From contig CAADGE010000042.1 in the NCBI GenBank assembly GCA_900696465.1, positions 1 to 64,000 on the forward strand: DNA of 64,000 nt. Direction: 5' to 3'. The notes beneath the pieces were generated by a model. That model had not been told where the DNA came from and did no database searches. It saw only the letters and a list, made by a program, of their open reading frames with translations. Positions 6,693-24,811 of this stretch are shown here, piece by piece (position 1 is the stretch's first letter; the number at the start of each line of letters is the position of its first letter). The position numbers and the translations under genes are program-made. This DNA comes from an uncultured Planctomycetota bacterium (GTDB taxonomy: Bacteria > Planctomycetota > Phycisphaerae > UBA1845 > UTPLA1).

Positions 6693-7066
6693 CGCGTTAA
6701 ATCCTCCTGCGAATACACCGATCAAATCGAAAGTATCAGTTCCTGTTTGACCGGCGAAAGGATGGGCGGAAGTCTATCTATGGCACAAGAAGCTTGTCAA
6801 ATCGTGCGGCGAGCTATTCTGCTTTCATCTGCACATTTCAGCGAAGTGCGATAGCTGCGCAGATCGACGGCATAATACGCCGCACCGGATTTTCTCGCTG
6901 CCTGAGTGCAATTATCCTCCGCGCGCGGCATCGGTCCGTAATTCTCCTCGAGCGACCGCGGCCAACCCCTCGCGCAGCATGGTTTTCACGATTCGCCGCC
7001 CGCTGGCATCGTTTTTGCTTAATCCGTCTCTTGCAGGGGTCCAGGCGCTCGAAAGGAGCCACCGGA
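6693..7066. other. Divergent intergenic region, halogenase-like / truncated hypF
   Basis: About 370 bases separate the - strand halogenase gene from the + strand hyp operon. It holds the halogenase ribosome-binding site at its left end and a sigma-54-type promoter at 7004-7019 near its right end. The middle contains several AT-rich words but no repeat or operator that I can define. No N-terminal HypF domains are encoded here in any frame. Confidence 0.5.
7004..7019 (+). promoter_or_regulatory. Sigma-54 (-24/-12) promoter for the hyp operon
   Basis: TGGCATCGTTTTTGCT matches the TGGCAC-N5-TTGCW consensus closely. GG is at 7005-7006, GC at 7017-7018, and exactly 10 bases lie between them. The predicted start of transcription near 7030 gives a leader of about 37 bases before ATG 7067. 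Two further copies head the hydrogenase and PFOR genes. Confidence 0.68.
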
Positions 7067-8296
7067 ATGAGCCCGACCGCACACGCATCGACCTTGCCAC
7101 CAGCCGCCGACTCCTACGGCGAGGCGGCAACCCTGCGCGGGCCGGTCCAAACACGCCGCCGTATCCTCGCGGTCGGAGCGGAGCGACAGTCCTCGATCTG
7201 TCTTTACCATGCCGACCAGGCGTACTGCCCGGAAACGCTTGGTGATCTGAGCCATCCTGCGGTATACCGCGCCTATCGTCGCCAGATCGAACAGCATATC
7301 CGATTGCGCGCCTTCAAACCGGACATCGTTGCCCACGACCTGCATCCGCTCTATCTCTCGACGCAGTACGCCCGGGAGCGTGCTGCGATGGGCGCGGTTG
7401 CTGTGGGCGTGCAGCACCATCACGCACACATCGTCAGCGTCATGACAGAGCATCGCTTGTCGCGGCCCGTGATCGGCGTTTGCTGCGACGGCGTCGGCTT
7501 TGGAGATGACGGCGCGGCGTGGGGCTGCGAGGTGCTGTATGCGACCCTCGCGGCTTACACGCGCATCGGACATCTTAATTACTTCCCGCTGCTCGGCGGT
7601 GATGCGGCAGCGACGGAGACCTGGCGGTCTGCGTATGCCCTGGTCCGACAATCCATGGAACATGAACAATGCGGCCTTATCCGCGCAGGCATTCCCCGCG
7701 AGGCCCTGGCATGTTTTGATCAGGTGCCTGCCGAACAACTCGAAGTGCTCGAACGACTGTGGGCCTCGACCCTCAACGCGCCGCCGACATCGAGTCTTGG
7801 CCGCGTCTTTGATGCCGTCAGCTTTCTGCTCGGACTGTGCGACCGAAACGACCGACCCGCACAAGCGGCCATCGCCCTCGAACAGTGTGCCCTCCCCGGC
7901 CCCGCAGAGCCGTATCCGTACGAAACGACGGCAGGCCCGGAGGGAATCCGCATGTCACTGTCGGCAACCATCCGCTCGATTCTGCGAGACCATGCCCATC
8001 GTCAGAACCGCGGGCGGATCTCCGCTCGATTCCACGAAACGGTTGCCCGGATGCTCGTTGCCACGACGCTGATTGCGGCGGAGCGGAGCGGGGTCACGGC
8101 CGTGGTCCTGTCGGGCGGCTGCTTTGCGAATGCCCGTCTGCGGACACGCACGATGGAACTGCTCGAAAGGCGGCATCTGACGGTGTATTCACCGCAACTC
8201 GTGCCCATCGGTGATGCAGGTATCGCCCTGGGACAGGCAGTTGTCGCCGCCGCGAGACTCGAAGGCGAGTCTTCGACGATGGATGGAGACGAGTGA
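7067..8296 (+). CDS. hypF: Truncated HypF: Kae1-like carbamoyltransferase domain only
   Basis: A 409-residue protein matching only the C-terminal Kae1-like half of HypF, the enzyme that carbamoylates the C-terminal Cys of HypE during [NiFe] CN-ligand synthesis. Landmarks in order are ILAVGAERQSS, VAHDLHPLYLSTQYA, QHHHAH, CDGVGFGDDGAAWG, LSGGCFANARL and GDAGIALGQAV. Full HypF is about 750 residues and starts with acylphosphatase, zinc-finger and YrdC-like domains; all three are missing. The start at ATG 7067 has GGAG 9 bases upstream and excludes a longer upstream frame of non-HypF character. The stop overlaps hypC (TGATG). Carbamoyl-AMP must come from another protein. Confidence 0.88.
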   Translation: MSPTAHASTLPPAADSYGEAATLRGPVQTRRRILAVGAERQSSICLYHADQAYCPETLGDLSHPAVYRAYRRQIEQHIRLRAFKPDIVAHDLHPLYLSTQYARERAAMGAVAVGVQHHHAHIVSVMTEHRLSRPVIGVCCDGVGFGDDGAAWGCEVLYATLAAYTRIGHLNYFPLLGGDAAATETWRSAYALVRQSMEHEQCGLIRAGIPREALACFDQVPAEQLEVLERLWASTLNAPPTSSLGRVFDAVSFLLGLCDRNDRPAQAAIALEQCALPGPAEPYPYETTAGPEGIRMSLSATIRSILRDHAHRQNRGRISARFHETVARMLVATTLIAAERSGVTAVVLSGGCFANARLRTRTMELLERRHLTVYSPQLVPIGDAGIALGQAVVAAARLEGESSTMDGDE

Positions 8297-8589
8297 TGTG
8301 CCTGGCCGTGCCTGGTCGAATCCTGAAATGCGACGCCGACGATGCCCTCGTCGATCTGCAAGGCAATCGCGTGCGTATCAGTCGCGTGCTGACGCCGGAC
8401 ACCCGCCCGGGCGACTGGGTGCTCGTGCATGCCGGCTTCAGTATTGCCACGGTGGACGAAGCCGAGGCCCTGGAGACGTGGGACTATCTCCGGCAGGCCT
8501 ATGGACCGGACTTCGCCACGGAATTGGAAATCGAATCCGAGGACACGGGAAACAGTGAAGCTTCTTTGGCGAAGGGGCTATCGCCATGA
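8296..8589 (+). CDS. hypC: Hydrogenase assembly chaperone HypC
   Basis: A 97-residue HypC/HybG-family chaperone. It must start at ATG 8296 so that the mature protein begins MCLAVPG, since Cys2 is the residue that holds the Fe(CN)2CO intermediate with HypD. A GTG immediately upstream would add one residue and bury that Cys. The body has the usual small beta-barrel with GDWVLVHAGFSI. A longer than usual acidic C-terminus (ESEDTGNSEAS) follows. It overlaps hypF at its 5' end and hypD by ATGA at its 3' end, so translation is coupled. Confidence 0.93.
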   Translation: MCLAVPGRILKCDADDALVDLQGNRVRISRVLTPDTRPGDWVLVHAGFSIATVDEAEALETWDYLRQAYGPDFATELEIESEDTGNSEASLAKGLSP

Positions 8590-9716
8590 CCGCTCGACTC
8601 GATAATCTGTTCCGCGAGTTACGCGAAGCGGCCGGGCAACTCTTGCGACCCGCGCAGTACATGGAAGTCTGCGGCACGCACACGGTCTCCTTTTATCGCA
8701 GCGGTCTTCGCGACCTGGTGCCGGGGAATATCCGCCTCATCAGTGGACCTGGCTGCCCTGTCTGTGTCACTGCGCAGCGACACATTGACGCAGCGATCGC
8801 CCTCTCCCGCGAACCAGGCGTCATCCTTGTCACGTATGGGGACATGCTCCGTGTGCCGGGAAAACTTGGCAGTCTCGAAGCCACGCGCGCAGCCGGCGCG
8901 CAGGTGCGTGTGATTACATCCGCACGGACCGCGCTGGAAATCGCCGTCGCAAACCCTGAGGCGACGGTCGTTTTCCTCGCGGTCGGCTTCGAGACGACTG
9001 CGCCGGCCACGGCGGCCACCCTCCTCGAAGCTGACCGACGAAACATCGACAATTTCGCCGTGCTCATGTGCCATAAGCTGGTCGTTCCGGCCATGCTTAC
9101 GCTTCTGAGGAACAAAGACACCGCGCTCGACGGCTTCCTCTGCCCCGGACATGTAAGTGTGATCATCGGTTCATCGGCCTATCGGCCGGTCGTCGAGCAG
9201 TACGCAAAGCCCTGTGTGGTCGCCGGCTTCGAACCCGAGCAGATGCTCCGCGGAATCCTGCAACTCGTACGGCAGTCGCTCGCCGGTGAGGCACGCTTGG
9301 AGAACATCTACCAGGCCGTGGTGCGCAGCGACGGGAATCCGACGGCCCAGCGGCTGATGGCGGAGGCCTTTGTCGCGGAAACAACTCCCTGGCGGGCTCT
9401 CGGCGAGATGCCTGCCAGTGGCCTGGGGCTGGCGCCGCGTTTCGCGCACTTCGATGCCGTGCGTCGCTTCGGCCTGACGATGGGTGAGGATGAGGACGAC
9501 CCGGCCTGCCGCTGTGGGGAAGTGATTCAAGGCAAGGTGCAGCCGGTTGAATGCCCCCTTTTCGGCCGCGGCTGCACTCCAATCACGCCGATCGGGCCCT
9601 GCATGGTCAGCAGCGAAGGCACTTGCGCGGCGTGGTACAAGTACAACCGGCCTGCAAAAGATCTCCCGCAGCGGGCCGAACGCCCGCACGCCTCAGTGAC
9701 GGAGGCGGTAACATGA
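8586..9716 (+). CDS. hypD: Hydrogenase formation protein HypD
   Basis: A 376-residue HypD, the [4Fe-4S] scaffold that with HypC assembles the Fe(CN)2CO group. Diagnostic motifs are MEVCGTHTVSFYRSG, ISGPGCPVCVT, GFETTAPATA, and the C-terminal cysteine-rich block CRCGEVIQGKVQPVEC followed by GRGCTPITPIGPCMVSSEG, where the cluster ligands lie. Length and all conserved cysteines are normal, so it should be functional. It overlaps hypC (ATGA) and hypE (ATGA). Confidence 0.95.
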   Translation: MTARLDNLFRELREAAGQLLRPAQYMEVCGTHTVSFYRSGLRDLVPGNIRLISGPGCPVCVTAQRHIDAAIALSREPGVILVTYGDMLRVPGKLGSLEATRAAGAQVRVITSARTALEIAVANPEATVVFLAVGFETTAPATAATLLEADRRNIDNFAVLMCHKLVVPAMLTLLRNKDTALDGFLCPGHVSVIIGSSAYRPVVEQYAKPCVVAGFEPEQMLRGILQLVRQSLAGEARLENIYQAVVRSDGNPTAQRLMAEAFVAETTPWRALGEMPASGLGLAPRFAHFDAVRRFGLTMGEDEDDPACRCGEVIQGKVQPVECPLFGRGCTPITPIGPCMVSSEGTCAAWYKYNRPAKDLPQRAERPHASVTEAVT

Positions 9717-10747
9717 TCGCCAGAATGACGACGAACCGCAGTACAGAACGTGTGATGCTGGCACACGGCGGCGGCGGTGAGCTGACCGGGCGACTGATCG
9801 AAGAACACTTTCTGCCGAAGCTCAGCAACCCCGCGCTGTCCACGTTGACCGACGGGGCAATTGTTCCGATTAACGGTACGCCTGTTGTCTTCACCACCGA
9901 TTCCTTTGTGGTGACGCCGCTGGAGTTTCCCGGTGGCGACATCGGCCGACTCGCTGTTTGCGGCACGGTGAATGACCTCGCTGTGATGGGCGCGATCCCG
10001 ACCGCGCTGAGTCTCGGCATCATCCTCGAAGAAGGCCTTCCGATGGATTTGCTGGATCGAGTGATTGCTTCGATCGCGCGGTCCGCGCAGGAAGCAGACG
10101 TGCCTGTTGTCACCGGCGACACCAAGGTGATCGAGCGTCGCGGCGAGGGCGGCATGTATATCAACACCGCCGGTGTCGGGGGGTTGCATCCTGGCGCTCA
10201 TCTGGACCTTGCCCGGATCGTGCCCGGTGATGTCGTACTCGTCAGCGGCACGCTGGCAGATCACGGGCTGACCATCATGTCGGTGCGTGCGGGAATCGCG
10301 TTTGACTCGGATCTTCGAAGCGACGCCGCGCCGCTCAACGAGCTTGTAGCGCGGCTGCTGGAGTGTGGAGCGGACATCAAGTTCCTTCGCGACCCGACCC
10401 GGGGCGGACTGGCGGGGGTGCTGGCCGACATCAGCGCCCGCGCCAACGTCAGCATCGAGATCAACGAGGCCTCGGTGCCCATCACATCGACGGCCCGACA
10501 TGCTGCGGAAATGCTCGGTCTTGATCCGCTGAGCGTCGCCAACGAAGGAAAACTGGTATGCGTTGTGGCCCACGATGACGCATCGAAGGCACTCAAGATT
10601 CTGCACGCGCATCGGCACGGGAAACAGGCCGCCATCATCGGCCGCGTGACCGACGCCTCGCCACCGCTGGTGGAACTGCGAACCCGCATCGGCGGCCGGC
10701 GAATCGTGCAGCGGCCCTACGGCGAGGAGTTGCCGAGGATATGCTAG
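9713..10747 (+). CDS. hypE: Hydrogenase expression/formation protein HypE
   Basis: A 344-residue HypE of the AIR-synthase / PurM fold. It dehydrates the carbamoyl group received from HypF to a thiocyanate on its C-terminal Cys and passes CN to the HypC-HypD complex. Visible features: AHGGGGELT near the N-terminus, TDSFVVTPLEFPGGDIG, RDPTRGGLAG, and the essential C-terminus PRIC, with Cys as the last residue. The start at ATG 9713 overlaps the hypD stop and has GGAGG upstream; MTTN at 9725 is a second possible start. About 90 bases separate it from the receiver gene. Confidence 0.95.
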   Translation: MIARMTTNRSTERVMLAHGGGGELTGRLIEEHFLPKLSNPALSTLTDGAIVPINGTPVVFTTDSFVVTPLEFPGGDIGRLAVCGTVNDLAVMGAIPTALSLGIILEEGLPMDLLDRVIASIARSAQEADVPVVTGDTKVIERRGEGGMYINTAGVGGLHPGAHLDLARIVPGDVVLVSGTLADHGLTIMSVRAGIAFDSDLRSDAAPLNELVARLLECGADIKFLRDPTRGGLAGVLADISARANVSIEINEASVPITSTARHAAEMLGLDPLSVANEGKLVCVVAHDDASKALKILHAHRHGKQAAIIGRVTDASPPLVELRTRIGGRRIVQRPYGEELPRIC

Positions 10748-10762
10748 GAAAATGATGCAACG

Positions 10763-10823
10763 ACGAATTACAAGAGAGACTTCCGGCTACCAGCTTTCCT
10801 TCGTAATTCGACATTCGTAATCA
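10763..10823. repeat. Degenerate GAATTAC / ATTCGTAAT repeat remnant
   Basis: The hypE-receiver gap contains ACGAATTAC and, about 35 bases on, GTAATTCGACATTCGTAATC. This gives both direct and inverted copies of a GTAATTCG word. It resembles the other short degenerate repeats in this window. A hairpin between the two arms is possible but the loop is long. Confidence 0.35.
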
Positions 10824-10840
10824 CCGCTGAGGGTACGCCG

Positions 10841-11230
10841 ATGACTACCACGCGCAACATTCTGCTGATCGACGACGACCCCGATATCCACAGCGCCGTC
10901 AAGCTGATCCTCGAACCGGAGGGCTATCAGGTGCAATGTGCCTTGACCGGCCCGGCCGGGATGGAGCTGGCCCGAAAGTCCCGGCCCGACGCCATCCTGC
11001 TGGATGTCATGCTCACGTCACCCTCCGAGGGCTTTCATCTTGCATATGAAATGCGGCAGGATGAATCCCTATCCGGTGTGCCGATCGTCATCCTCTCCGC
11101 CATCGGCCAGACCATGGGCATGGACTATGCCAAAGAGCTGGGCACGGATTACCTGCCGGCGAATGCCTTCGTTGAGAAGCCGTTCGATGCGGCGACGCTC
11201 CGCGAGGCCGTTCGGAGTGTCCTGAAGTAA
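10841..11230 (+). CDS. Stand-alone response-regulator receiver domain
   Basis: A 129-residue CheY-like receiver with no output domain. The acidic pocket is D11-D13, the phosphoacceptor is D55 (ILLDVML), and the conserved lysine is K113 (VEKPF). It lies directly before the RegB-like kinase and so is its probable phospho-acceptor. With no DNA-binding domain it must act by protein contact or as part of a relay. No sigma-54 activator is encoded in this window to receive the signal. Confidence 0.9.
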   Translation: MTTTRNILLIDDDPDIHSAVKLILEPEGYQVQCALTGPAGMELARKSRPDAILLDVMLTSPSEGFHLAYEMRQDESLSGVPIVILSAIGQTMGMDYAKELGTDYLPANAFVEKPFDAATLREAVRSVLK

Positions 11231-11257
11231 GGCCAAGAGGCGGAATGGACCCTGACC

Positions 11258-12775
11258 GTGGGCGCCCCAACATCGCTGCTCGAATTCCATGGAAGCGAAC
11301 GCAGCTTTCGTGCGCGCACGCTTATCTCCTTTGTTCGTCTCAAGTGGTTCATTCACCTGCGCTGGGTGATGATCGCCGCGGCCTTCGCCGTAGTCGGCCT
11401 TGAACGCGCCCTCACCGGTCTGTCTCGACCGCAGCCGCTCTTTACCGTGCTGGCGCTGCTGCTGATCGTCAACTTTTTCTGGTGCGGCCTCTCTTACCGT
11501 TTGCAGCGCCTGGCCCACGACGTCGCCATCGATGCAGAATCGTCCTACAAGGCGGCCACCGTCCTGGCAAACGCGCAGATTGCCGTGGACCTGCTGCTGC
11601 TCACCGCTATCTTGAGATACACCGGCGGCGTCGAAAGCCCGTTGGCGATCTTCTACCTGTTCCACATGGCCATTGCCGCACTGCTCCTGACGCGACCGCA
11701 CGTTTATTTTCAGGCCGTCTGGGCGCTGGCGCTGTATGCCGCACTCGCCCTTGGTGAACTGTCCGGCCTCCTTACGCCGCATTACCCCTTCCTGCCGACG
11801 CTCGGTCCGGGCACGTGGTACGCCAACACCGGTTTCGTTTTCTGCGCTGTGCTGATTGTGGCATGCGGCATTCTCGGGATGCTGTACTTCGTCCTGCAGA
11901 TCGCCGGCCGGGTTGAGTCGCACGAGCGGGCTCTGGCCCGTGCCAATTCCGCGCTACGGTTTTCGCAGCAGAAACTCGTCGAGCTTCAGGCCCGTAAGGC
12001 CGAATTCATGCGCACCGCCGCTCATCAGCTAAAGAGTCCGCTGGCGATCGTGCAGACGCAGGTCGGTCTGCTGCGTGAGGGGCTGGTTCCTGCCAACGAA
12101 GTGCGACCGCTCTACGACCGCATTCTCTCGCGCTGCCGTGAGGGCATTCTACAGGTAACTCGACTGCTTACCTTTGCCCGACTTCAGGAGCTGGAATCGA
12201 CACGCACGAATGCTGTTCGCGAATCGCATTTTCATGCGAAAGATGCTGCTCGAATCCTCCGCGAGCAGTGTGACCGTCAACGGCCTGTCGCCGAGGAGAA
12301 GTCGATCAAGTTGCATTATCAGGAAGCTTTCAGCACCGACGCGATTCTTTCGGTCGAGCCCGCCGACTTTCTGGATTGCACCGCCAACCTGATCGACAAC
12401 GCCATCAAATACACGCCCAACGGTGGCGAGGTAAACGTCTTCATCCGCACGGTGCACGACAGCAACCCGCGGGGCGCGGCGAGCACCATGCCGGATGACT
12501 CGGGGAGCGACGTCTTGGTCACCGTCAGCGACACCGGTATCGGCATGGGTGAGGAGACGCGCGCGCATCTCTTTGAGCCATATCGCCGCGGCGTGGAGGC
12601 CATCGCTGCGCAAATCTCCGGCAGCGGACTCGGCATGTCCATCGTGCAGGCCGTTGTCGAGCGCGCCGGAGGGCGAATCGACGTCGACACCGCTCCCGGC
12701 AAAGGCAGCCGTTTCACGCTCCACTTTCCGGCCGTGCGAGCATCGGACCACGATCGGACCGTGGCGGAAAAATAG
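11258..12775 (+). CDS. RegB/PrrB-like membrane sensor histidine kinase
   Basis: A 505-residue kinase that starts at GTG 11258; the ribosome-binding site is weak, so the exact start is uncertain. About six membrane helices (residues 30-215) resemble the RegB/PrrB sensor: LRWVMIAA in helix 1 matches the family's LRW motif. GGVESPL (123-129) aligns with the quinone-binding heptapeptide GGxxNPF, with Asn-Pro-Phe changed to Ser-Pro-Leu. A coiled segment leads to HisKA with H256 (AAHQLKSP), then the N box NLIDNAIKYTPNGG and G boxes DTGIGM and GSGLGMSIV. RegB senses ubiquinone-pool redox state and regulates hydrogenase and other redox genes in proteobacteria. The position between hyp and hydrogenase genes suggests the same here. 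Confidence 0.82.
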   Translation: MGAPTSLLEFHGSERSFRARTLISFVRLKWFIHLRWVMIAAAFAVVGLERALTGLSRPQPLFTVLALLLIVNFFWCGLSYRLQRLAHDVAIDAESSYKAATVLANAQIAVDLLLLTAILRYTGGVESPLAIFYLFHMAIAALLLTRPHVYFQAVWALALYAALALGELSGLLTPHYPFLPTLGPGTWYANTGFVFCAVLIVACGILGMLYFVLQIAGRVESHERALARANSALRFSQQKLVELQARKAEFMRTAAHQLKSPLAIVQTQVGLLREGLVPANEVRPLYDRILSRCREGILQVTRLLTFARLQELESTRTNAVRESHFHAKDAARILREQCDRQRPVAEEKSIKLHYQEAFSTDAILSVEPADFLDCTANLIDNAIKYTPNGGEVNVFIRTVHDSNPRGAASTMPDDSGSDVLVTVSDTGIGMGEETRAHLFEPYRRGVEAIAAQISGSGLGMSIVQAVVERAGGRIDVDTAPGKGSRFTLHFPAVRASDHDRTVAEK

Positions 12776-12920
12776 CCCCCGAAACGAGTAAAAGTCCGCA
12801 ACCAATCGGCCCAGCGCGACTGCCGCCCCTCCGGCCAAGTCGCACAGACTCGCTAACACCGATTTTTTTGAATTTTCGGCCGCCCTGGACCGCTGTGATC
12901 ATCCCGAAATCCGCACACGC

Positions 12921-12936
12921 TGGCGCGAGGATTGCA
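12921..12936 (+). promoter_or_regulatory. Sigma-54 (-24/-12) promoter for the hydrogenase operon
   Basis: TGGCGCGAGGATTGCA fits TGGCRCG-N4-TTGCA, with GG (12922-12923) and GC (12934-12935) separated by 10 bases and a pyrimidine just before the T. The predicted transcript starts near 12947 and leaves a leader of about 86 bases before ATG 13033. The rest of the 257-base gap (12776-13032) shows AT-rich runs but no clear enhancer-binding palindrome. Confidence 0.7.
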
Positions 12937-13032
12937 TCCGATCTCGATGGGCACGGACCCCACGCCGCGTGCAAGGGTGGTTGCCGACGGCATCGACACG
13001 GGCCAGCCGTGCACATGCAACGGGAGCCAGCG

Positions 13033-14082
13033 ATGCTCGACCGAATGTTGACCCATCCTGAACTGCTCGAACTAGTCAACGAGCTGGCGCTCCAGCGGCG
13101 GATCGTCGGCCCGGTTGCACGTGACGGTCGATACTTTTACGAGGAAGTTACACGGGCGACCGATCTTGACCTGACCTTCAATTATTGCGTTTATTCACCG
13201 CGCGGAGCTCTTTTTCCGCCGCAAGAAACGCTCTTCGTCTTCAAACGAACCAATGGCACGTTTACCGCCGAGCCGGTCATCGATGTGCGACCGACAGCAC
13301 TGGTCGGCGTGCACCCCTGTGACATCCATGCGATTCGGTTGCTGGATCACGTTTTCGAACAGGATCAGCGCGACGAACACTACCTCTCGCGGCGTGCGCA
13401 CACGATGATCGTGGGCATCGACTGCCAGCGACCCTGCACGGAAGGCGTTTTCTGCGCCGACATGGAAACGAACGCGGCGGACAAGGGTTTTGACGTGATG
13501 CTCTATCCACTGAGCGATCCCGGAGCAACAGAGCCCCTTTACGGCGTCGTTTACGGTACGTCGATCGGCAGGGATTGGGTGTTGTATGGCCGACGCGGCC
13601 GCATACCCACGGCCACGGATGAGCGGACTTTCGAACAGTACCAGCGACACAAGACGGACGCGTTTCCGCGGATGCTTCGGATGAAGGCCGACGAACTGCC
13701 TGCGTTGCTTGATCGCTCTTACGACTCGCTGTTGTGGGAGGCGACTGCGCGGCGATGCTACTCCTGTGGGAGCTGCAACCTGTCGTGCCCGACATGCTAC
13801 TGCTTCAACATCCTGGACGAGACCGATCTGTCGGGCACGACGGGGCGCCGCGAGCGGACCTGGGACGGCTGTCACCTTCGCGAATTCGCCGAGGTGGCGG
13901 GCGGCCATAACTTCCGACCGAAGGCCGGATCGCGTCTGCGACATCGCATCTATCGCAAGGCCAAGTGGATTCGTCAGCGAACCGGCCTGCCCGGCTGTGT
14001 CGGATGTGCCCGGTGCGATCGGGCCTGCACGGCGAAGATCAACTCGGTCGAAATCTACAACCAGCTCGCGGAGGAGGTGTGA
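13033..14082 (+). CDS. hyhB: Group 3b [NiFe] hydrogenase beta subunit, two [4Fe-4S] clusters
   Basis: A 349-residue homologue of the HyhB / sulfhydrogenase beta / anaerobic sulfite reductase subunit A family. It passes electrons between the small subunit and the flavin subunit. ATG 13033 is chosen because GGGAG lies 6 bases upstream; further in-frame codons upstream look non-coding. Two ferredoxin-type clusters are visible: C242, C245, C248, C252, and C322, C325, C328, C332. More cysteines lie at C131, C135 and C141. The last codons carry the GAGGAGG ribosome-binding site for the gamma gene two bases after the stop. Confidence 0.87.
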   Translation: MLDRMLTHPELLELVNELALQRRIVGPVARDGRYFYEEVTRATDLDLTFNYCVYSPRGALFPPQETLFVFKRTNGTFTAEPVIDVRPTALVGVHPCDIHAIRLLDHVFEQDQRDEHYLSRRAHTMIVGIDCQRPCTEGVFCADMETNAADKGFDVMLYPLSDPGATEPLYGVVYGTSIGRDWVLYGRRGRIPTATDERTFEQYQRHKTDAFPRMLRMKADELPALLDRSYDSLLWEATARRCYSCGSCNLSCPTCYCFNILDETDLSGTTGRRERTWDGCHLREFAEVAGGHNFRPKAGSRLRHRIYRKAKWIRQRTGLPGCVGCARCDRACTAKINSVEIYNQLAEEV

Positions 14083-14084
14083 AG

Positions 14085-14942
14085 ATGCTTGCTCCGCCGA
14101 TCCCATACAAGCCGACCAACGCCGAGCTTTATCTCCCGAAGCCCGCGCGAATTCTCAGAATCACGCAACTAACGGAGATGGAGAAGCACTACGAGCTGGC
14201 CTTCCTCGACGGCCACCGTCTGAACCATCAACCGGGGCAGTTCGTGCAGGTGTCCATCCTCGGCGTCGGTGAATGCCCGATTTCCATCTGCTCGTCGCCC
14301 ACGCGGCCGGATACGTTCGAGCTGTGCATCCGCCGCGCCGGCAGCGTTACGAATCGCATCCATGCGCTGCGCGAGAAGGACATCATCGGCATTCGCGGAC
14401 CGCTGGGACACGGCTTCGACGTCACCGAAATGCATGGGAAGGACATTCTCATGATCGCCGGCGGTCTGGGCATGGCCCCGCTGCGATCGCTTGTGCAGTA
14501 CGTGCTCGATGAGCGGCCTCGCTTCGGGCAGTTCCATCTGCTCTATGGCTGCCGCGAGCCGAAGGAACTTCTCTTTACCGATGATCTGACCCGCTGGCGC
14601 GAGAGCGGGGATGTGAATCTGAAAATAACCGTCGATCGACCCGATGAGCAGTGGCGCGGCCGGGTCGGCGTGGTGACGACGCTGTTTGCGGATCTGCCGA
14701 AACTCAATCCCCAGGATACGGTCGTCGTGATCGTCGGTCCGCCGGTGATGTTCAAGTTCGTGGTGATCGAAGTGCTCGCCCGGCGCATCCCACAGAGCAG
14801 CATCTACTGTTCGCTCGAACGGCGGATGAAATGCGGCATCGGCAAGTGCGGCCACTGCCAGGCAAACCATGTGTACGTCTGCATCGACGGCCCTGTCTTC
14901 AAGTATGGACAACTCAAGGCCATGCGGGAGGCGATGGAATGA
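14085..14942 (+). CDS. hyhG: Group 3b [NiFe] hydrogenase gamma subunit (FAD, NAD(P)-binding, [2Fe-2S])
   Basis: A 285-residue diaphorase subunit of the ferredoxin-NADP reductase / DHOD electron-transfer family. It exchanges hydride with NADP(H) and single electrons with the beta subunit. The flavin domain includes HQPGQFVQVSILG and SICSSPTRPDTFELCIRR. The nucleotide domain includes IAGGLGMAPLRS and LLYGCREPKELLF. The C-terminal [2Fe-2S] motif is CGIGKCGHCQANHVYVC (Cx4Cx2Cx7C). The start at ATG 14085 lies after GAGGAGG. The stop overlaps the small-subunit start (ATGA). Confidence 0.92.
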   Translation: MLAPPIPYKPTNAELYLPKPARILRITQLTEMEKHYELAFLDGHRLNHQPGQFVQVSILGVGECPISICSSPTRPDTFELCIRRAGSVTNRIHALREKDIIGIRGPLGHGFDVTEMHGKDILMIAGGLGMAPLRSLVQYVLDERPRFGQFHLLYGCREPKELLFTDDLTRWRESGDVNLKITVDRPDEQWRGRVGVVTTLFADLPKLNPQDTVVVIVGPPVMFKFVVIEVLARRIPQSSIYCSLERRMKCGIGKCGHCQANHVYVCIDGPVFKYGQLKAMREAME

Positions 14943-15724
14943 AACCGAGAATCGCCATCTTCAGCTTGACCGGTTGCGAGGGATGCTCGCTGGCCATCCT
15001 CGAGTTGGAGGACCAGCTCCTCGATCTCCTGGGCGCGGTGGACATCGTGAACTTCCGCGAGGGCATGACGGACCGCGCCTGGGATATCGACATCGGCTTT
15101 GTCGACGGCGCCGTCTCTACGCCGGAGGATGAAAAGGAAGTCCGCCATTTCCGCGAGCACTGCAAGGTTCTGGTGGCCATCGGCTCGTGCGCCTGCCTTG
15201 GCGGGATCAACACACTCAAACACTATCAAGGGGCAACGGGGCCAAAGGGCCGAGGAGCAATCGGCGAGAATGGAAGCGACGCCTATCGACGGTACGTCTA
15301 CGGAGACAAGGCAGAGTGGTTCCCGACGACCGAGGCGCGACCGATCTCCGCTGTCGTCAAGGTCGATTATGAACTGCCCGGCTGCCCCATGGTGAAGGAG
15401 GAGTTCCTCGCTTTTGTCACCAGCTTGCTTGCCGGACGGACGTTCAAGCTGCCGGATTTCGCCGTCTGTGTCGAGTGCAAGAAGCGCGGCACGCTCTGCC
15501 TCTACGAAAAAGGCATCCTCTGCCTCGGACCGGTCACGCGGGCCGGCTGCAACGCCATCTGCCCGGCTTTTGGTTCCAAGTGCGAGGGCTGCCGCGGAAT
15601 CGTATCGAAGGAGGCCCTGGTTGCCGCCGGCATCAATCTCCGTGAGCAATACAACGTCGAACTGCAGGAGGTCCTCGACGACCTGCGGCTCTACGGTGCC
15701 TACCAGGAGGCGGACCTGCCATGA
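14939..15724 (+). CDS. hyhS: Group 3b [NiFe] hydrogenase small (delta) subunit
   Basis: A 261-residue iron-sulfur small subunit that carries electrons to and from the NiFe site. The proximal cluster ligands are C13 and C16 (TGCEGCSLAILE), GSCACLGG and PGCPMVKEEF. The C-terminal region has two more cysteine groups (CVECKKRGTLC, CLGPVTRAGCNAICP, CEGCRG), as in cytosolic group 3 enzymes. There is no Tat signal, which agrees with a cytoplasmic NADP-linked hydrogenase. The start overlaps the gamma stop and the end overlaps the large-subunit start, both as ATGA. Confidence 0.94.
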   Translation: MKPRIAIFSLTGCEGCSLAILELEDQLLDLLGAVDIVNFREGMTDRAWDIDIGFVDGAVSTPEDEKEVRHFREHCKVLVAIGSCACLGGINTLKHYQGATGPKGRGAIGENGSDAYRRYVYGDKAEWFPTTEARPISAVVKVDYELPGCPMVKEEFLAFVTSLLAGRTFKLPDFAVCVECKKRGTLCLYEKGILCLGPVTRAGCNAICPAFGSKCEGCRGIVSKEALVAAGINLREQYNVELQEVLDDLRLYGAYQEADLP

Positions 15725-17028
15725 AAAACGTCTCCATCGATGTCAAACACGTGACGCGGGTCGAAGGCCACGGCAACATCACCATCCGTGTGCAGGACGG
15801 CGCCATTACGCGACTCGAACTGGCGATCGTAGAGAGCCCGCGATTCTTCGAAGCATTTCTGCGCGGCCGCAAGTACGACGAGGCCCCGCACATCACCTGC
15901 CGGATCTGCGGCATCTGCAGTGTCGGGCACACGACCGCCAGCGTGAAGGCCGTCGAGGCGGCGTGCGGCATCGAGCCGAGTGAGCAGACGGTACTGCTTC
16001 GAAAGCTGATCCTCTATGGCGAGGAGCTGCAGAGTCACTTCCTGCATCTCTACTTCCTTGCGGTGCCGGACTACTTCGGCGTCGGATCGGTGATCCCCCT
16101 TGCCAAGACCCATCCGGATGTGGTGCGCAGGGCGCTGCGGATGAAGAAACTGGCCAACGATATCTGCGCGGTCGTCGGCGGCCGGCACATTCATCCGATC
16201 GCCCTGCATGTCGGCGGCATTACCCATGTCCCTCGCGACGAGGAACTTCTGGACCTCAAGCGGCGGCTCGAAGCCACGCGGGCGGACCTGGCGGAAACGG
16301 CGGCGCTGTTCGCCACGCTCAAGGTACCGCAACTCGAACGCCCCACCGAATATGTATCGCTCAAGACCCAGAACGGTGAGTATGCCTTCTACGATGGGGA
16401 TATCGTTTCCACGCTGGATCCGAAACCCACCAAGGCAGCTGACTACCGATCGCGAATCCTCGAAACCGTGGTCGAGCACTCCGCCGCAAAGCACTGCCGT
16501 TCACCCAACAGCCCGACCTACGCCGTTGGGGCGCTGGCCCGGTTCAACAACAATCATTCGCAACTGCATCCCACGGCGCGACAGATCGCGCGTACCCTCG
16601 GCCTTGAGCCGATCTGCAACAATCCGTATCACAACAATACGGCGCAGCTCATCGAGAGCGTCCATTGCGTAGAGGCAGCCATCGAAATCCTTGACACCCT
16701 GCTGACCCACGGGATGCAGGTCGAGCCCCTTCGCAAACCCACACGTCACGGTCTGGGCGCCGGGCTCGCCGAAGTGCCGCGCGGTCTCCTGGTACACGAA
16801 TACGGAATCGACGCGAAGAACCGCATCGAAAGCGCCAACCTGATCATCCCGACGGGTCAGAATCTGGCCAATATCGAGGAAGACATGCGGGCGCTCGTGC
16901 CGCCGCTTCTCGAATCGGGACTCGGCAAAGAGCAGATCACGCTGCAACTGGAGATGCTGGTACGTGCGTATGACCCCTGCATCTCCTGCGCGACGCACAT
17001 GCTGGACATCAAATGGGATGAGACATGA
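15721..17028 (+). CDS. hyhL: Group 3b [NiFe] hydrogenase large (alpha) catalytic subunit
   Basis: A 435-residue catalytic subunit. The N-terminal Ni ligands are C63 and C66 in RICGICSVGH, and the C-terminal pair is C420 and C423 in DPCISCATH. Both match group 3b L1 and L2 signatures. Nine residues (MLDIKWDET) follow H426 and would be removed by the maturation protease encoded next. RVEGHGN near residue 13 is the usual conserved N-terminal glutamate region. All four NiFe ligands and the normal length indicate an active enzyme for reversible H2 oxidation with NADP(H); some family members also reduce sulfur. AGGAGG precedes the start, and the stop overlaps the protease gene (ATGA). Confidence 0.96.
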   Translation: MKNVSIDVKHVTRVEGHGNITIRVQDGAITRLELAIVESPRFFEAFLRGRKYDEAPHITCRICGICSVGHTTASVKAVEAACGIEPSEQTVLLRKLILYGEELQSHFLHLYFLAVPDYFGVGSVIPLAKTHPDVVRRALRMKKLANDICAVVGGRHIHPIALHVGGITHVPRDEELLDLKRRLEATRADLAETAALFATLKVPQLERPTEYVSLKTQNGEYAFYDGDIVSTLDPKPTKAADYRSRILETVVEHSAAKHCRSPNSPTYAVGALARFNNNHSQLHPTARQIARTLGLEPICNNPYHNNTAQLIESVHCVEAAIEILDTLLTHGMQVEPLRKPTRHGLGAGLAEVPRGLLVHEYGIDAKNRIESANLIIPTGQNLANIEEDMRALVPPLLESGLGKEQITLQLEMLVRAYDPCISCATHMLDIKWDET

Positions 17029-17564
17029 CCTGGACACACAGCCATCCTGAAAAGGCGAGCCATGCCTGCTCAACGCCGGACGTCGTCATCGTCGGCTGTG
17101 GGCGCTGGCTGCGCCGCGACGATCAGGCGGGGCTGATCGCGGCCCAGATGATCGAAAAATCACCGCCGTCAGGATGCGTGGTCGTGGGCACCGAGGCACC
17201 GACCACGGATATCCCGAATCTCGTTGAAAATGTTCAATTACTCATAATCGTGGATGCTGCACGCTCCGCGGAGGGCCATCCTCCCGGAACCTGGCAGCGC
17301 ATGGACTACTGGACGCACAAGGACCATCTCGCACAGCGCTGCCGGACCGACACCCATACGCTCAGCGTTGATCTGGCCCTGCGCATCGCCGAGGAAATGG
17401 GCATGCTGCCGCCCAACGTCTGGATTTACGCCGTGACCGCCGAAGACTGCGGCTACGGCGAGGAGCTTTCGCCGGTGGTCGCTCGAGTGATCCCCGAGGT
17501 CACCGCACAGATCGAGTCCGACATCTCCGAGTTTCGTGCGGGAAGAGAGGTGTGCCATGCATGA
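17025..17564 (+). CDS. Hydrogenase maturation endopeptidase (HybD/HycI family)
   Basis: A 179-residue peptidase that checks Ni insertion and trims the large-subunit C-terminus. The N-terminal motif is GCGRWLRRDDQAG, where the usual GxGNxLxxDxGxG is altered and the metal-binding acid is the Asp pair. The second acid is in VDAARS and the histidine ligand in DTHTLSVD. A longer-than-usual C-terminal end (ARVIPEVTAQIESDI) is present. Its substrate is almost certainly HyhL, with which it is translationally coupled. It overlaps hypA by 8 bases. Confidence 0.88.
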   Translation: MTWTHSHPEKASHACSTPDVVIVGCGRWLRRDDQAGLIAAQMIEKSPPSGCVVVGTEAPTTDIPNLVENVQLLIIVDAARSAEGHPPGTWQRMDYWTHKDHLAQRCRTDTHTLSVDLALRIAEEMGMLPPNVWIYAVTAEDCGYGEELSPVVARVIPEVTAQIESDISEFRAGREVCHA

Positions 17565-17949
17565 GTTCTCCATTGCCGCCGGAATCATTGAGATCGCCTG
17601 TGAGGAAGCGCGCAAGGCGCACGCAGATCATGTTCGAAGCGTCACCTGCCGCGCCGGTGTGCTGCGACAGGTCGACCCCGAGCTTCTGCACGATGCCTTT
17701 GCGCTGGCTGCTGAAGACACGCCCTGCGCCGGCGCCGAACTGTCCATCGAGCAAATGCCCGTGCACCTGGCCTGCCCCGATTGCGGGCATCGGTTCTCCG
17801 CACATGGCTGGGACTGGCAGTGTCCGAAGTGCGGCCAGGACGCCACCTGCCTCGAAGGCGGCGATGAACTGGACGTGACATCCGTGGAAGTCGATTCGGA
17901 AGCGACGGGAGCGCAAGCGAAGGGAGGCCTCACATGGTCGGCGTCATGA
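17557..17949 (+). CDS. hypA: Hydrogenase nickel-insertion protein HypA
   Basis: A 130-residue HypA. The start at ATG 17557 gives the invariant N-terminus MHEFSIA, whose His2 binds nickel. The structural zinc site is CPDCG plus CPKCG. It delivers Ni to the large subunit together with HypB. The C-terminal tail beyond [11 protein letters not shown] is longer than usual and overlaps the malic-enzyme start by 16 bases, which suggests tight coupling. Confidence 0.93.
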
Positions 17950-19634
17950 ACAAACCGAAGTCGGATACCAGGAAGATTACACCCCCCTACGATGGTGTCG
18001 AGCTGCTGCGCGATCCCGTTTACAACAAGGGCCCGGCCTTCTCGCAAGCCGAACGCGAGGCACTCGGCCTGCGCGGTCTTCTGCCACCATCGCAGCTTTC
18101 GCTCGAGCAGCAGGTCTCCCTGGAGCTCGAACACCTGCGTGCCAAGAACGACGATCTGGAGAAATTCATCGGCCTGGCTGCCCTGCAGGATCGCAATGAG
18201 ACGCTCTTTTATCGTGTCGTCGTCGAGAACATGCCGGAGCTGCTGCCGATCGTCTATACCCCGACCGTCGGCAAGGCCTGCCAGCGCTACAGCCACATCT
18301 TCCGGCAGCGACGCGGTGTCTGGATCACCCCGGATGACATCGACCGCATACCCGAACTCCTGCGCAACGCACCCTACCCCGACATCCGCCTGATCGTCGT
18401 CACCGACAATGAGCGAATCCTCGGTCTCGGCGACCAAGGCGCCGGCGGAATGGGCATTCCGATCGGCAAGCTTGCGCTCTACACCGCCGCGGCGGGAATC
18501 CATCCAACGCACTGCCTGCCGGTCTCGCTGGACGTCGGCACCAACAACGCAGAGCTGCTGAACGATCCGTGCTACCTCGGTTATCGCCATCGACGGCTGC
18601 ACGGTGCTCCGTACGACGCTCTCATCGAGGCCTTCGTCGAAGCGGTTAAGGAAGTCTTCCCCCGGGCTGTCATCCAGTGGGAGGACTTCGGACACCACAC
18701 AGCGTTCAACATTCTTGATCGATATCGTCGGCGCGTCCCGAGCTTCAACGACGACATCCAGGGCACCGCCGCTGTCACCCTCGGCGGCATTCTCGCCGCC
18801 CTGCGTGTCACCGGCGGGAAGCTCTCCGATCAGCGCATTGTTTATGCCGGCGCCGGCAATGCAGGCATCGGCATCGCCCGACTGTGCCGCGCCGCCATGC
18901 TCGAAGAATGCACAGACATGCAGAAGGTTCATGCGGCCCAGGCGGTGCTCGACTCACGCGGGCTGGTCTTTGAAGGACGCGAGGTGGACGACCCGCACAA
19001 GCGGGAGTTCATGATGAACCGTGCGGCGATGAAGGCCTACGGTTTCGAAGGCGAGGGCCCGTTCACGCTGCTGGACGTGGTGCGGCGCGTGCGACCGACG
19101 ATCCTCGTGGGCGTCACGGCCAAGGCCGGTACCTTCAACGAGGAGATCATTCGAGAGATGGCCAGACACGCGCCTAGGCCGATCATCCTGCCACTGTCCA
19201 ACCCGACTTCGAAATCGGAGTGCACGCCCGCCGAGGCGCTGCACTGGACGGAAGGCCGGGCGCTGATCGCGACCGGCAGCCCGTTTGCACCCGTGGAGTA
19301 TGACGGCAAGACGCATGTCATCGGTCAGGGTAACAACTGCTTCGTCTTTCCCGGCATCGGCCTGGGTTGCATCCTGAGCGAGACGAGTGAGGTCAGCGAC
19401 GCCGTTTTCATGGTGGCCGCTCGAACGCTGGCCGAAATGGTGACGCCTGAACGCCTCGCGCAGGGAGCGATGTATCCCGATCAGTCGATGATGCGGGAGG
19501 TCAGCCGGCGCATTGCCGGAGCCGTCATCCGCGAGATCCGGGACCGCAACCTCGGTCGCCTCGTCCCGGATGAGGCCGTGGACGAGCTGGTGCAGGAGAA
19601 CATGTGGTATCCGGAGTATGTGTCTTACGTGTGA
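17934..19634 (+). CDS. NAD(P)-dependent malic enzyme
   Basis: A 566-residue malic enzyme of the large MaeA/SfcA type (malate + NAD(P)+ to pyruvate + CO2 + NAD(P)H, reversible at high CO2). Catalytic features: Tyr in [13 protein letters not shown], Lys in [12 protein letters not shown], metal ligands in [11 protein letters not shown] and [10 protein letters not shown], and a nucleotide site at [14 protein letters not shown]. The start ATG 17934 follows GGGAGG by 6 bases and lies inside the hypA end. The gene sits between hypA and hypB, an unusual place that implies co-expression with the hydrogenase and possible sharing of NAD(P)H. Cofactor preference cannot be read with confidence. Confidence 0.93.
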
Positions 19635-19695
19635 TCAGTTCCTGAAGCGGGCGGATTGTCCCGTCGCGCCGAGATCGGCTTCGAGGAGGCGCACC

Positions 19696-20355
19696 GTGAA
19701 CATCAAAATCCTTCGCCGCGTGCTGGAGAAGAATGATTCCGCGGCCGCGGAAAATCGAATCTGGTACAACCGGCATCACATCACCTGCATCAACCTCCTC
19801 GGCGGCGCCGGCAGCGGGAAGACTGCAATCCTCGAAGCCCTCCTGCCCGAACTGCAGACTGAATTGCGCTGCGCCGTTCTCGAAGGCGACCTCGCCACCA
19901 CGCGAGATGCCGATCGAATCGCCGCTCTGAACGTCCCCGTTCTCCAGCTCCTTACCGACGGCGGCTGCCATCTAACGGCCACGCATGTGCAGGCGGCGCT
20001 GCACGAACTTCCGCCGGATTCTCTGGATCTGCTCTTCATCGAGAACGTCGGCAACCCGATCTGCCCGGCGAACTTCGACCTCGGCGAACATCTGCGAATC
20101 AGCGTCCTGAGTGTGGCCGAGGGCGATGACAAACCGAGCAAGTATCCGCTGCTGTTTCGCGATGCGACCTTGGCGCTGATCACCAAGGTCGATCTGCTTC
20201 CCCATGTAAAGTTCGACCTGGCACAGGTCCGTGAGGACTTGCGGCGGCTCAATCCTGCTGTGCGAATCCTCCAGACGAGCGCTCGCACCGGCGAAGGCAT
20301 CGGCGACCTGTCCGCCTGGATCATGGAGCGAGCCCTTTGCCTGACAGCTGTTTGA
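19696..20355 (+). CDS. hypB: Hydrogenase nickel-insertion GTPase HypB
   Basis: A 219-residue GTPase that supplies nickel with HypA. The start is GTG 19696, with GAGGAGG 6 bases upstream. The P loop is GGAGSGKT (36-43). Further motifs are EGDLATTRDADRI, FIENVGNPICPANFDLGE, the switch region SVAEGDDKPSKYP, and TKVDL in place of NKxD. The N-terminal CCxxC high-affinity nickel site and any His-rich stretch are absent, so this is the short form with only the G-domain metal site. The 205-base gap that follows contains the PFOR promoter. Confidence 0.92.
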   Translation: MNIKILRRVLEKNDSAAAENRIWYNRHHITCINLLGGAGSGKTAILEALLPELQTELRCAVLEGDLATTRDADRIAALNVPVLQLLTDGGCHLTATHVQAALHELPPDSLDLLFIENVGNPICPANFDLGEHLRISVLSVAEGDDKPSKYPLLFRDATLALITKVDLLPHVKFDLAQVREDLRRLNPAVRILQTSARTGEGIGDLSAWIMERALCLTAV

Positions 20356-20473
20356 CCAGAATCGAAACACGATAGGTTCTGTTTCCCGCAAAAAATCGTT
20401 CGCGGTGCGGAAAAATCCGTCCTCTGTTCGCTCCTAAGTCCTGCAAAATCCGGTTTTAGCGTCATTGGCCGGG

Positions 20474-20489
20474 TGGTACGCCGGTTGCT
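20474..20489 (+). promoter_or_regulatory. Sigma-54 (-24/-12) promoter for the PFOR genes
   Basis: TGGTACGCCGGTTGCT differs from TGGCACG-N4-TTGCW by one base. GG (20475-20476) and GC (20487-20488) are 10 bases apart. The predicted start near 20500 lies about 60 bases before ATG 20561. The upstream part of the gap (20356-20470) is AT-richer than its surroundings and contains CGGAAAAATCCG, a small palindrome of unknown role. Confidence 0.65.
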
Positions 20490-20560: not shown

Positions 20561-21496
20561 ATGGTCGCTGCAAGTTATCGACTGCCCGTCAAAGATGAAC
20601 TGGGCTTCTGCAACGTCTTTCTCTCGGCCCTCGGCGGCGACGGCGCCAACATGGCCGGCAAGCTGCTTTTCAAGATCGGCTGCAAGATGTTCGGCCTCGA
20701 CGGTGGTTTCGATGCCAGGTACGGCTCTGAAAAGAAAGGCACGGCCACGGATGTGTCCGTGCGGTTCTGTGAGGTCGGCACGCCGGTGCGACAGTCCGGC
20801 CCGACGCGCCGGCCGAATTATCTGGTTGTGTTTCATGACGACTTGATCACCCCGCTCGACCTGGGCCGTGGTCTGCACGACGGCGCCGTGTGCATCGTCA
20901 ATACGATTCAGCCGCCGTCGGAGATCCGCAAGCTGCTCCGGCTGCACAGCGGAAAGATCATCTGCCTGGACGCCACCAAGATCGCGGTTCAGACTCGAAG
21001 CCGGCTCAACATGCCGCTGGTCGGCGTCCTTTGTCATGAGATTGGCTTCCCGGATGAGCAGATCACCAAGGTTATCGCCGATCAGTGGCCGAAGGCGGCG
21101 GAAGCGAATCTCGCCGCCTACGCCGCGGCCATCGAGCATCTGGAGACCGAAACTTTCGATGCGGATGACCGGTTCCCGCTGACGGAGCCGACCTCAATTT
21201 ACGGTCCCATCGGCTGGCGCAACATGCTCAACGGCGGAACGATCGACGCGATCAAGTTCACGACGATCAATCGAGATAACCGCATCGCGGGGCGCGGACA
21301 TGTACCGAAGTTCGACGCCGCGGCGTGCAACAGTTGCGGCATCTGCCTGACGGTGTGCAGCGACCCTGGCGGCCTGCTCTGGCGACAAGGCAGAATGGAA
21401 GGCATCGATCCGCTCTTCTGCAAGGGCTGCATGCGGTGCGTCGAGGTCTGTCCAGAGACGAAGAAGGGTAAGGCGCTGACAACGGACTATGCGTAA
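20561..21496 (+). CDS. Pyruvate:ferredoxin oxidoreductase gamma-delta fusion
   Basis: A 311-residue fusion of the gamma domain (about 15-190; LSALGGDGANMAGKLL, VVFHDDLITP) and a two-cluster ferredoxin delta domain. Cluster ligands are C256, C259, C262, C266 and C287, C290, C293, C297; the second group reads CMRCVEVCP. In the four-subunit archaeal type these are separate proteins. AGGAGG lies 9 bases before ATG 20561. It pairs with the alpha-beta fusion encoded next. Together they oxidise pyruvate to acetyl-CoA and CO2 with ferredoxin, or make pyruvate in reverse. Specificity for pyruvate over other 2-oxoacids is inferred. Confidence 0.88.
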   Translation: MVAASYRLPVKDELGFCNVFLSALGGDGANMAGKLLFKIGCKMFGLDGGFDARYGSEKKGTATDVSVRFCEVGTPVRQSGPTRRPNYLVVFHDDLITPLDLGRGLHDGAVCIVNTIQPPSEIRKLLRLHSGKIICLDATKIAVQTRSRLNMPLVGVLCHEIGFPDEQITKVIADQWPKAAEANLAAYAAAIEHLETETFDADDRFPLTEPTSIYGPIGWRNMLNGGTIDAIKFTTINRDNRIAGRGHVPKFDAAACNSCGICLTVCSDPGGLLWRQGRMEGIDPLFCKGCMRCVEVCPETKKGKALTTDYA

Positions 21497-23916: not shown

Positions 23917-24039
23917 CGGCCAAACGCCGCCCTGCACCTGCACGCGCCGCCTATAATCCGCTGCTCGATGCGGCATCGCGCCCGCAACCTCGAACTACCG
24001 GCACGTGAATTGCTGCATTCCTGTCGCAGGAGGTGTGCC

Positions 24040-24750: not shown

Positions 24751-24811
24751 TTGACCGCAGCACCAGCCCTCCGGTCGACGCTGCCAACAGTCCTGAAAGG
24801 CAGGTACTGCC

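What the first reader, a model, noticed from the sequence alone, without database searches (positions are those of the whole stretch)
7004..20489. Three sigma-54-type promoters at the heads of the hyp, hydrogenase and PFOR genes
TGGCATCGTTTTTGCT (7004), TGGCGCGAGGATTGCA (12921) and TGGTACGCCGGTTGCT (20474) all have GG and GC exactly 10 bases apart and TTGCW at -12. Each lies 30-90 bases of leader upstream of the first gene of a co-directional block. This would place hydrogenase maturation, a group 3b hydrogenase, malic enzyme and PFOR in one RpoN regulon. I did not notice such a site elsewhere in the intergenic regions I inspected, but I ran no scan.
Basis: partly seen in the sequence, partly recalled or inferred. 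Interest (0 to 1): 0.75.

Follow-up and report, generated by a model that had tools for sequence, protein, structure and literature searches.

The report
Oxygen-sensor-linked sigma-54 hydrogen regulon
The three proposed promoters look real: in this relative of the planctomycetes they probably switch on hydrogenase and fermentation genes together, under a regulator that appears to sense oxygen through heme.

Summary
The three sites are present as described. The core motif by itself is weak evidence: 212 matches genome-wide against 226 for the reversed pattern. Conservation is the evidence. A model-free pattern, [TC]GGN8TTGC, occurs within 300 nt upstream of orthologous head genes in relatives in 22 of 37 cases (PFOR-gamma 7/10, hydB 7/10, hypF 8/17), against 4 of 83 for internal genes hypD, hypE, hydG, hydD, hydA and PFOR-alpha-beta. 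rpoN is present. I also found a palindrome, YGYGnRWWWWYnCRCR, often paired 19-22 bp apart upstream of the -24 element, as enhancer sites are. Models trained without the window single out exactly its three sites. In 436 kb of the same genome they find one further such site, before an operon encoding a protoglobin histidine kinase and an NtrC-type activator. That pair lies near hyp, hydrogenase, PFOR or malic genes in 11 relatives. Best reading: this pair drives an RpoN regulon of hydrogen and pyruvate metabolism, and itself. DNA binding, expression and the sign of the oxygen response are untested.

The parts
7004..7019 (+). sigma-54-type -24/-12 promoter of the hyp block
   Evidence: score 13.3; conserved before hypF in 8 of 9 same-family loci
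6868..6951 (+). candidate enhancer palindromes of the hyp promoter (6868-6885, 6904-6921, 6934-6951; the weakest set)
   Evidence: scores 8.3, 9.0, 7.2
7067..8296 (+). hypF, carbamoyltransferase (Kae1-like) half only
8296..8589 (+). hypC (by my reading of the translation)
8586..9716 (+). hypD
9713..10747 (+). hypE (AIRS domains)
10841..11230 (+). receiver-only response regulator
11258..12775 (+). membrane histidine kinase, weakly PilS/RegB-like
12762..12801 (+). paired candidate enhancer palindromes of the hydrogenase promoter (12762-12779, 12784-12801)
   Evidence: scores 8.2, 8.7; pair 16.9
12921..12936 (+). sigma-54-type promoter of the hydrogenase block
   Evidence: score 17.0; orthologous leaders
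13033..17028 (+). four-subunit sulfhydrogenase-type [NiFe] hydrogenase, beta 13033-14082, gamma 14085-14942, delta 14939-15724, alpha 15721-17028
   Evidence: best models are sulfhydrogenase subunits, all below the equivalog cut-offs
17025..17564 (+). hydrogenase maturation protease
17934..19634 (+). malic enzyme
19699..20355 (+). hypB (start approximate)
20386..20422 (+). paired candidate enhancer palindromes of the PFOR promoter (20386-20403, 20405-20422)
   Evidence: scores 6.8, 12.1; pair 18.9
20474..20489 (+). sigma-54-type promoter of the PFOR block
   Evidence: score 16.3; orthologous leaders
20561..21496 (+). PFOR gamma/delta subunit
21550..23916 (+). PFOR alpha-beta fusion
23999..24014 (+). 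fourth sigma-54-like site, without a palindrome nearby
24040..26862 (+). rest of the PFOR block: cytidylate-kinase-like 24040-24750, small membrane protein 24812-25516, PLP lyase of the methionine gamma-lyase type 25513-26862

Best explanation
The three sites are RpoN (sigma-54) promoters of one regulon: hydrogenase maturation, an NAD(P)-linked hydrogenase with malic enzyme, and PFOR. The activator is most likely the NtrC-type regulator encoded elsewhere in the genome (G000:C46:63821-65203), phosphorylated by the protoglobin histidine kinase encoded just before it. It would bind palindromes YGYGnRWWWWYnCRCR, often in pairs 19-22 bp apart, centred mostly 45-130 bp upstream of the TGG, remodel the RpoN holoenzyme, and also drive its own operon. 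Shown: the sites, their conservation, the palindromes, rpoN, the kinase-activator pair, its position near the regulon genes in relatives, and the palindrome at its own promoter. Inferred: binding by this activator, heme and oxygen sensing, transcription, and the sign of the response (induction at low oxygen is my guess).
For: rpoN. [TC]GGN8TTGC upstream of head genes 22 of 37, internal genes 4 of 83. Palindrome log-likelihood 180 against 31-49 in shuffles; 18 of 39 centre distances at 19-22 bp. Models trained on 22 promoters of other genomes: only the three window sites have both scores at 13 or more; in 436 kb of the same genome the only one is before the globin-kinase operon. Palindromes scoring 10 or more within 420 nt upstream of the kinase in 15 of 30 genomes, against 5% of random pieces; none of these trained the model. 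Protoglobin+HisKA+HATPase and receiver+Sigma54_activat+HTH_8 domains. Pair near hyp, hydrogenase, PFOR or malic genes in 11 relatives.
Against: No binding, expression or oxygen data. In this genome the pair is on another contig than the window. In 8 of 10 same-family hydrogenase loci and in 5 PFOR loci (L239, L241-L244) the pair is not in the stretch held. G015 keeps the pair but gave no hydB or PFOR-gamma match and only a weak hypF one, so the pair has other targets. Palindromes are weak at the window hyp promoter, and absent above the cut at hyp_G006 and hyd_G007. Outside the family no hypF site was found (0 of 8, four of them unfairly measured). AfGcHK is enhanced by oxygen, which sits badly with induction at low oxygen.
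Confidence: 0.8

Rival explanations
1. The sites are real RpoN promoters, but another of the seven activators controls them; the protoglobin pair is only a further target, or a neighbour by chance.
For: Six of the seven activators are conserved in G015, G016 and G008, so occurrence does not single one out. G015 keeps the pair without the main targets.
Against: The pair's own promoter carries the palindrome, and this activator is the one found beside the regulon genes in G008 and ten other relatives.
Confidence: 0.12
2. The palindromes are operators of a redox repressor such as Rex (recalled consensus TTGTGAAnnnnTTCACAA, similar in layout), acting on RpoN promoters.
For: Same 16-bp layout, TGYG..R....Y..CRCA; recalled: Rex controls fermentation and hydrogenase genes in anaerobes. 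rex was not searched for.
Against: Position 45-130 bp upstream of the -24 element and spacing of 19-22 bp suit an enhancer better than a repressor; the motif also precedes the activator operon.
Confidence: 0.05
3. The three sites are chance matches and transcription uses other promoters.
For: TGGN8TTGCW is no commoner than its reversed control, 212 against 226; 5 against 3.32 expected in the window.
Against: Conservation before head genes but rarely before internal genes; agreement with a model trained without the window.
Confidence: 0.03

Closest known systems
NmpRSTU of Myxococcus xanthus (PMC11841059: passages, sections 16 and 22; PMC6211767: passages)
   Same: A heme-binding globin-coupled kinase (NmpU) works with an NtrC-like activator of sigma-54 promoters; paired inverted repeats; the system activates its own genes; targets include a hemerythrin gene and genes of oxygen use.
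   Different: NmpU acts in a relay with NmpT and NmpS; repeat GCGCA-N5-TGCGC, mostly 14-15 nt apart; reported targets are pilR, a cbb3 oxidase and others, and the word hydrogenase does not occur in that paper's main text. Activators beside Myxococcota globin kinases had this activator as best hit in 1 of 6.
AfGcHK of Anaeromyxobacter (PMC8697598: start of abstract in a listing)
   Same: Protoglobin + kinase; closest solved globin domain, 5ohe, E 1.8e-34; Tyr and His aligned.
   Different: There oxygen enhances autophosphorylation; what its system regulates is stated to be unknown. Here targets are proposed from sequence.
Sigma-54 control of [NiFe] hydrogenase and hyp genes (PMC12316311: passages)
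   Same: RpoN promoters before hydrogenase and maturation genes.
   Different: In the passages shown (12 of 21) hydrogenase is named for Proteobacteria; here a sulfhydrogenase-type enzyme and PFOR in a planctomycete relative.
DosR regulon of Mycobacterium smegmatis (PMC8125079: passages)
   Same: Heme sensor kinases and a regulon that contains a hydrogenase, Hyh, important in hypoxia.
   Different: The regulator is not a sigma-54 activator and the sensors are not protoglobins (recalled).

Membership tests
sigma-54 promoter | GG and GC elements 10 bases apart, TGGYAYR-N4-TTGCW-like (consensus recalled) | tested here: met
   the 12921 site has G for A in the -24 box
sigma-54 promoter | rpoN and sigma-54 activators in the genome | tested here: met
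sigma-54 promoter | paired upstream enhancer sites | tested here: met
   sequence level only:
sigma-54 promoter | transcript start about 12 bases after GC, RpoN-dependent | not testable with these tools
   no RNA data
globin-coupled histidine kinase | protoglobin + HisKA + HATPase | tested here: met
globin-coupled histidine kinase | distal Tyr and proximal heme His | tested here: met
   Tyr42 and His96 invariant in 4 sequences, aligned to residues 45 and 99 of 5ohe by my count; their roles are recalled
globin-coupled histidine kinase | binds heme and responds to oxygen | not testable with these tools
   needs protein work
NmpRSTU | activator orthologous to NmpR | tested here: inconclusive
   1 of 6 Myxococcota neighbours of globin kinases had this activator as best hit; NmpR itself was not used
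NmpRSTU | binding site GCGCA-N5-TGCGC | tested here: not met
   the palindrome here is YGYGnRWWWWYnCRCR (paper site)
NmpRSTU | NmpS and NmpT between kinase and regulator | tested here: not met
   in the stretches held the activator directly follows the globin kinase; homologues elsewhere in the genome were not sought
group 3b [NiFe] hydrogenase | four sulfhydrogenase-type subunits and nickel-site CxxC motifs | tested here: met
   (RICGIC, DPCISC by eye); below equivalog cut-offs; the group name is recalled

The most novel reading that the evidence does not exclude
A heme-based oxygen-sensor kinase and a dedicated NtrC-type activator form a core redox switch of this Phycisphaerae-like order (kinase matched in 90 of 114 genomes): through RpoN and one palindrome it places hydrogenase, PFOR, malic enzyme, in some genomes the methionine-lyase-type gene, a hemerythrin neighbourhood and the sensor itself in one self-activating regulon.
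Probability: 0.6. Interest if true: 0.7.

Novelty: new variant of a known kind. Interest (0 to 1): 0.6.

Why it matters
The genes controlled by the Anaeromyxobacter globin-coupled kinase system are stated to be unknown (PMC11841059, section 22). Here candidate targets of such a kinase can be read from sequence: hydrogen and pyruvate metabolism. It would extend sigma-54 control of hydrogenases beyond the Proteobacteria named in the passages I read, and it gives a concrete enhancer sequence and regulator to test in a poorly cultured group.

Tried and rejected
Core motif alone: not enriched genome-wide, so not used as evidence. One search used a spacing one base short and is only an off-register pattern (60 matches against 85 for its reversed control). 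Occurrence of activators in G015, G016 and G008 did not single out the regulator. Orthology of the activator to NmpR: not supported, though NmpR itself was not used. Early palindrome models mixed two registers and were redone. The receiver-only regulator and kinase at 10841-12775 were considered as the control system; the regulator has only a receiver domain, so it cannot be a sigma-54 activator. In G008 six palindrome matches (control 0) include three near hydB and PFOR; I listed ORFs around the other three but identified no target. The second window site at score 16.0, 43304, has no palindrome and I take it as chance.

Selections. Of 36 listed sites, 14 were left out of the no-window model: 3 window sites and 11 that I judged doubtful, shared or off the three head genes. 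In one search I gave 26 loci and dropped rows under 33% identity (the divergent hydB rows of L151 and L233-L235 among them) or starting within 200 nt of an end. All but one of the 22 head-gene hits at score 13 were training sites, hence the model-free counts. Loci for the linkage count were fetched because coordinates were close, so it is a list of cases and not a rate.

Paper searches: globin-coupled histidine kinase or AfGcHK (20 papers), sigma 54 + hydrogenase + Planctomycet (2), group 3b + hydrogenase + DosR + hypoxia (0), globin-coupled + Planctomycet + hydrogenase (0), smegmatis + hydrogenase + DosR + Hyh (2), NmpR set (4), PFOR + sigma 54 + hydrogenase + enhancer-binding, any three (16, 12 listed). 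I opened four papers, in passages or the named sections only. None that I saw reports this link.

Full report
The observation. The three sites are at the stated places and strand. Taking +1 as 12 bases after the GC, leaders to the ATG codons are about 37, 86 and 61 nt. TGGN8TTGCW occurs five times in the window, 3.32 expected, and 212 times in the genome against 226 for its reversed control, so counts alone prove nothing. The stricter TGGYAYN5TTGCW occurs 23 times against 7. By my reading of the translations, genes after these sites include flgB, dnaK, clpB, an hcp-like gene and an acetyl-CoA synthetase.

The genes. The hyp block holds the C-terminal half of hypF, hypC, hypD, hypE, a receiver-only regulator and a kinase; the second block a sulfhydrogenase-type [NiFe] hydrogenase, its protease, malic enzyme and hypB; the third PFOR and further genes. 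Group 3b is the recalled name for such an enzyme; the subunits match sulfhydrogenase models below the curated cut-offs.

Conservation. Orthologues of the first genes came from genomes of the same family and order. In 300 nt upstream, sense strand, window excluded, [TC]GGN8TTGC is found for PFOR-gamma in 7 of 10 loci, hydB 7 of 10 and hypF 8 of 17, together 22 of 37. For hypD, hypE, hydG, hydD, hydA and PFOR-alpha-beta it is 0 of 16, 1 of 16, 2 of 14, 0 of 14, 0 of 13 and 1 of 10, together 4 of 83. With the weight matrix at 13 or more the heads give 8, 6 and 8, but 21 of these 22 sites trained the matrix. Upstreams of long ORFs in this genome reach 13 in 1.1% of 274. Misses at 13: PFOR-gamma in G075 and G070; hydB in G013, G003, G001 and G076; hypF in G013 and in all eight loci outside the family. 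In G013 and four of those eight, hypF is full-length (open frames), so the stretch measured lies inside the gene.

The palindrome. Upstream of the -24 elements an expectation-maximisation search on 30 promoters (the window's three included) gave log-likelihood 180, against 31-49 for eight sets of dinucleotide-block shuffles at each of two widths; the refined form is YGYGnRWWWWYnCRCR. With the later model, 21 of 25 promoters have at least two copies, against 80 of 2480 random 160-nt pieces; 18 of 39 centre distances are 19-22 bp; 46 of 51 centres lie 46-128 bp before the TGG (22 of the 25 trained that model). Trained on 22 promoters of other genomes only, the models give the window sites sigma-54 scores 13.3, 17.0 and 16.3 and palindrome-pair scores 13.4, 16.9 and 18.9; no other window site has both at 13 or more. 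By sigma-54 score alone 7004 ranks only fifth, behind 23999 and 43304 too. Site 23999 is conserved before the same gene in G016 and G070. Two head-gene promoters, hyp_G006 and hyd_G007, have no palindrome above the cut.

The likely regulator. rpoN is on contig 40; seven activators are strong matches. In G008 an activator gene lies directly before hypF, preceded by a kinase; its orthologue here, 66% identical, is on contig 46. Pfam finds Protoglobin, HisKA and HATPase in the kinase, and receiver, Sigma54_activat and HTH_8 in the activator. The pair lies within about 10 kb of hyp/hydrogenase, PFOR or malic/cytidylate-kinase-like genes in G001, G075, G076, G052, G109, G111, G112, G019, G022 and G008, and in G003 the activator adjoins the cluster: 11 genomes; G056 is at 13.5 kb. 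I chose these because coordinates were close; the kinase was matched in 90 of 114 genomes. Against: in eight of the ten same-family hydrogenase loci and in five PFOR loci the pair is not in the stretch held.

Its own promoter. In 436 kb of this genome (20 spread stretches plus two chosen on purpose, one of which, L190, holds the kinase operon) the only site with both scores at 13 or more is TGGCATATCAATTGCT, 243 nt before the kinase start inferred from homology, palindrome 15.1, pair 16.8. Among the 30 best-matching kinases fetched, the best palindrome within 420 nt upstream scores 10 or more in 15, and 15 or more in 6; for 940 random pieces the shares are 5% and 0.1%. None of these upstreams trained the model. 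A sigma-54 site of 12.5 or more lies in the same stretch in 13 of the 30. G015, with no hydB or PFOR-gamma match and only a weak hypF one, keeps both. G015 and G016 have a second, divergent sigma-54 site sharing the palindromes, and this genome a weaker one, 9.5; the divergent side here encodes a small cysteine-rich protein and a hemerythrin. In G009, G006 and G001 the methionine-lyase-type gene also has such a composite site.

Sensor chemistry. The globin domain matches the solved globin-coupled kinase 5ohe (E 1.8e-34); Tyr42 and His96 are invariant in four sequences and align with residues 45 and 99 of that chain by my count. Heme and oxygen binding are inferred. Oxygen enhances AfGcHK, whereas in M. 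xanthus an NmpR target rises in hypoxia, so the sign is open.

Known or new. The parts are of known kinds: sigma-54 hydrogenase promoters, globin kinase plus NtrC-like activator (NmpRSTU), and NmpU/NmpT homologues already noted in Planctomycetes (PMC6211767, passages). The link of such a pair to hydrogenase and PFOR, and its palindrome, were not in what I saw from the searches named under Tried and rejected. Nearest named kinases are from Planctomycetota and Phycisphaerae metagenome bins, for example isolate PLA2.

Limits. No expression, binding or oxygen data; rex was not searched; bins may be incomplete, so absences are weak.

Noticed in passing
window 7067-8296: HypF is only its carbamoyltransferase half (409 aa). 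zf-HYPF has no match in the assembly; short frames of 402-426 aa occur in seven same-family genomes, while G013 has a full-length one. How the carbamoyl group is activated is unclear.
   Followed up: partly
window 10841-12775: A receiver-only regulator and a membrane kinase (weak PilS and RegB matches) end the hyp block. Kinase and regulator occur together at the hydrogenase locus in G016, G009, G007 and G001, the regulator alone in G013 and G006.
   Followed up: partly
L190 4732-6260, L191 10826, L192 10529: The globin-kinase operon is divergent from a small cysteine-rich gene and a hemerythrin in this genome; divergent sigma-54 sites share the palindromes in three genomes, weakly in this one.
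   Followed up: partly
L296 1501-1516 (G000:C22:189866): Strong sigma-54-like site (19.1) with two weaker palindrome matches 22 bp apart before a serA-like gene, next to another activator gene.
   Followed up: no
window about 22750-22870: Within the PFOR alpha-beta fusion the translation has a stretch (GSLRNPKSEIRNERG) that reads like an inserted repeat, between the alpha and beta parts.
   Followed up: no
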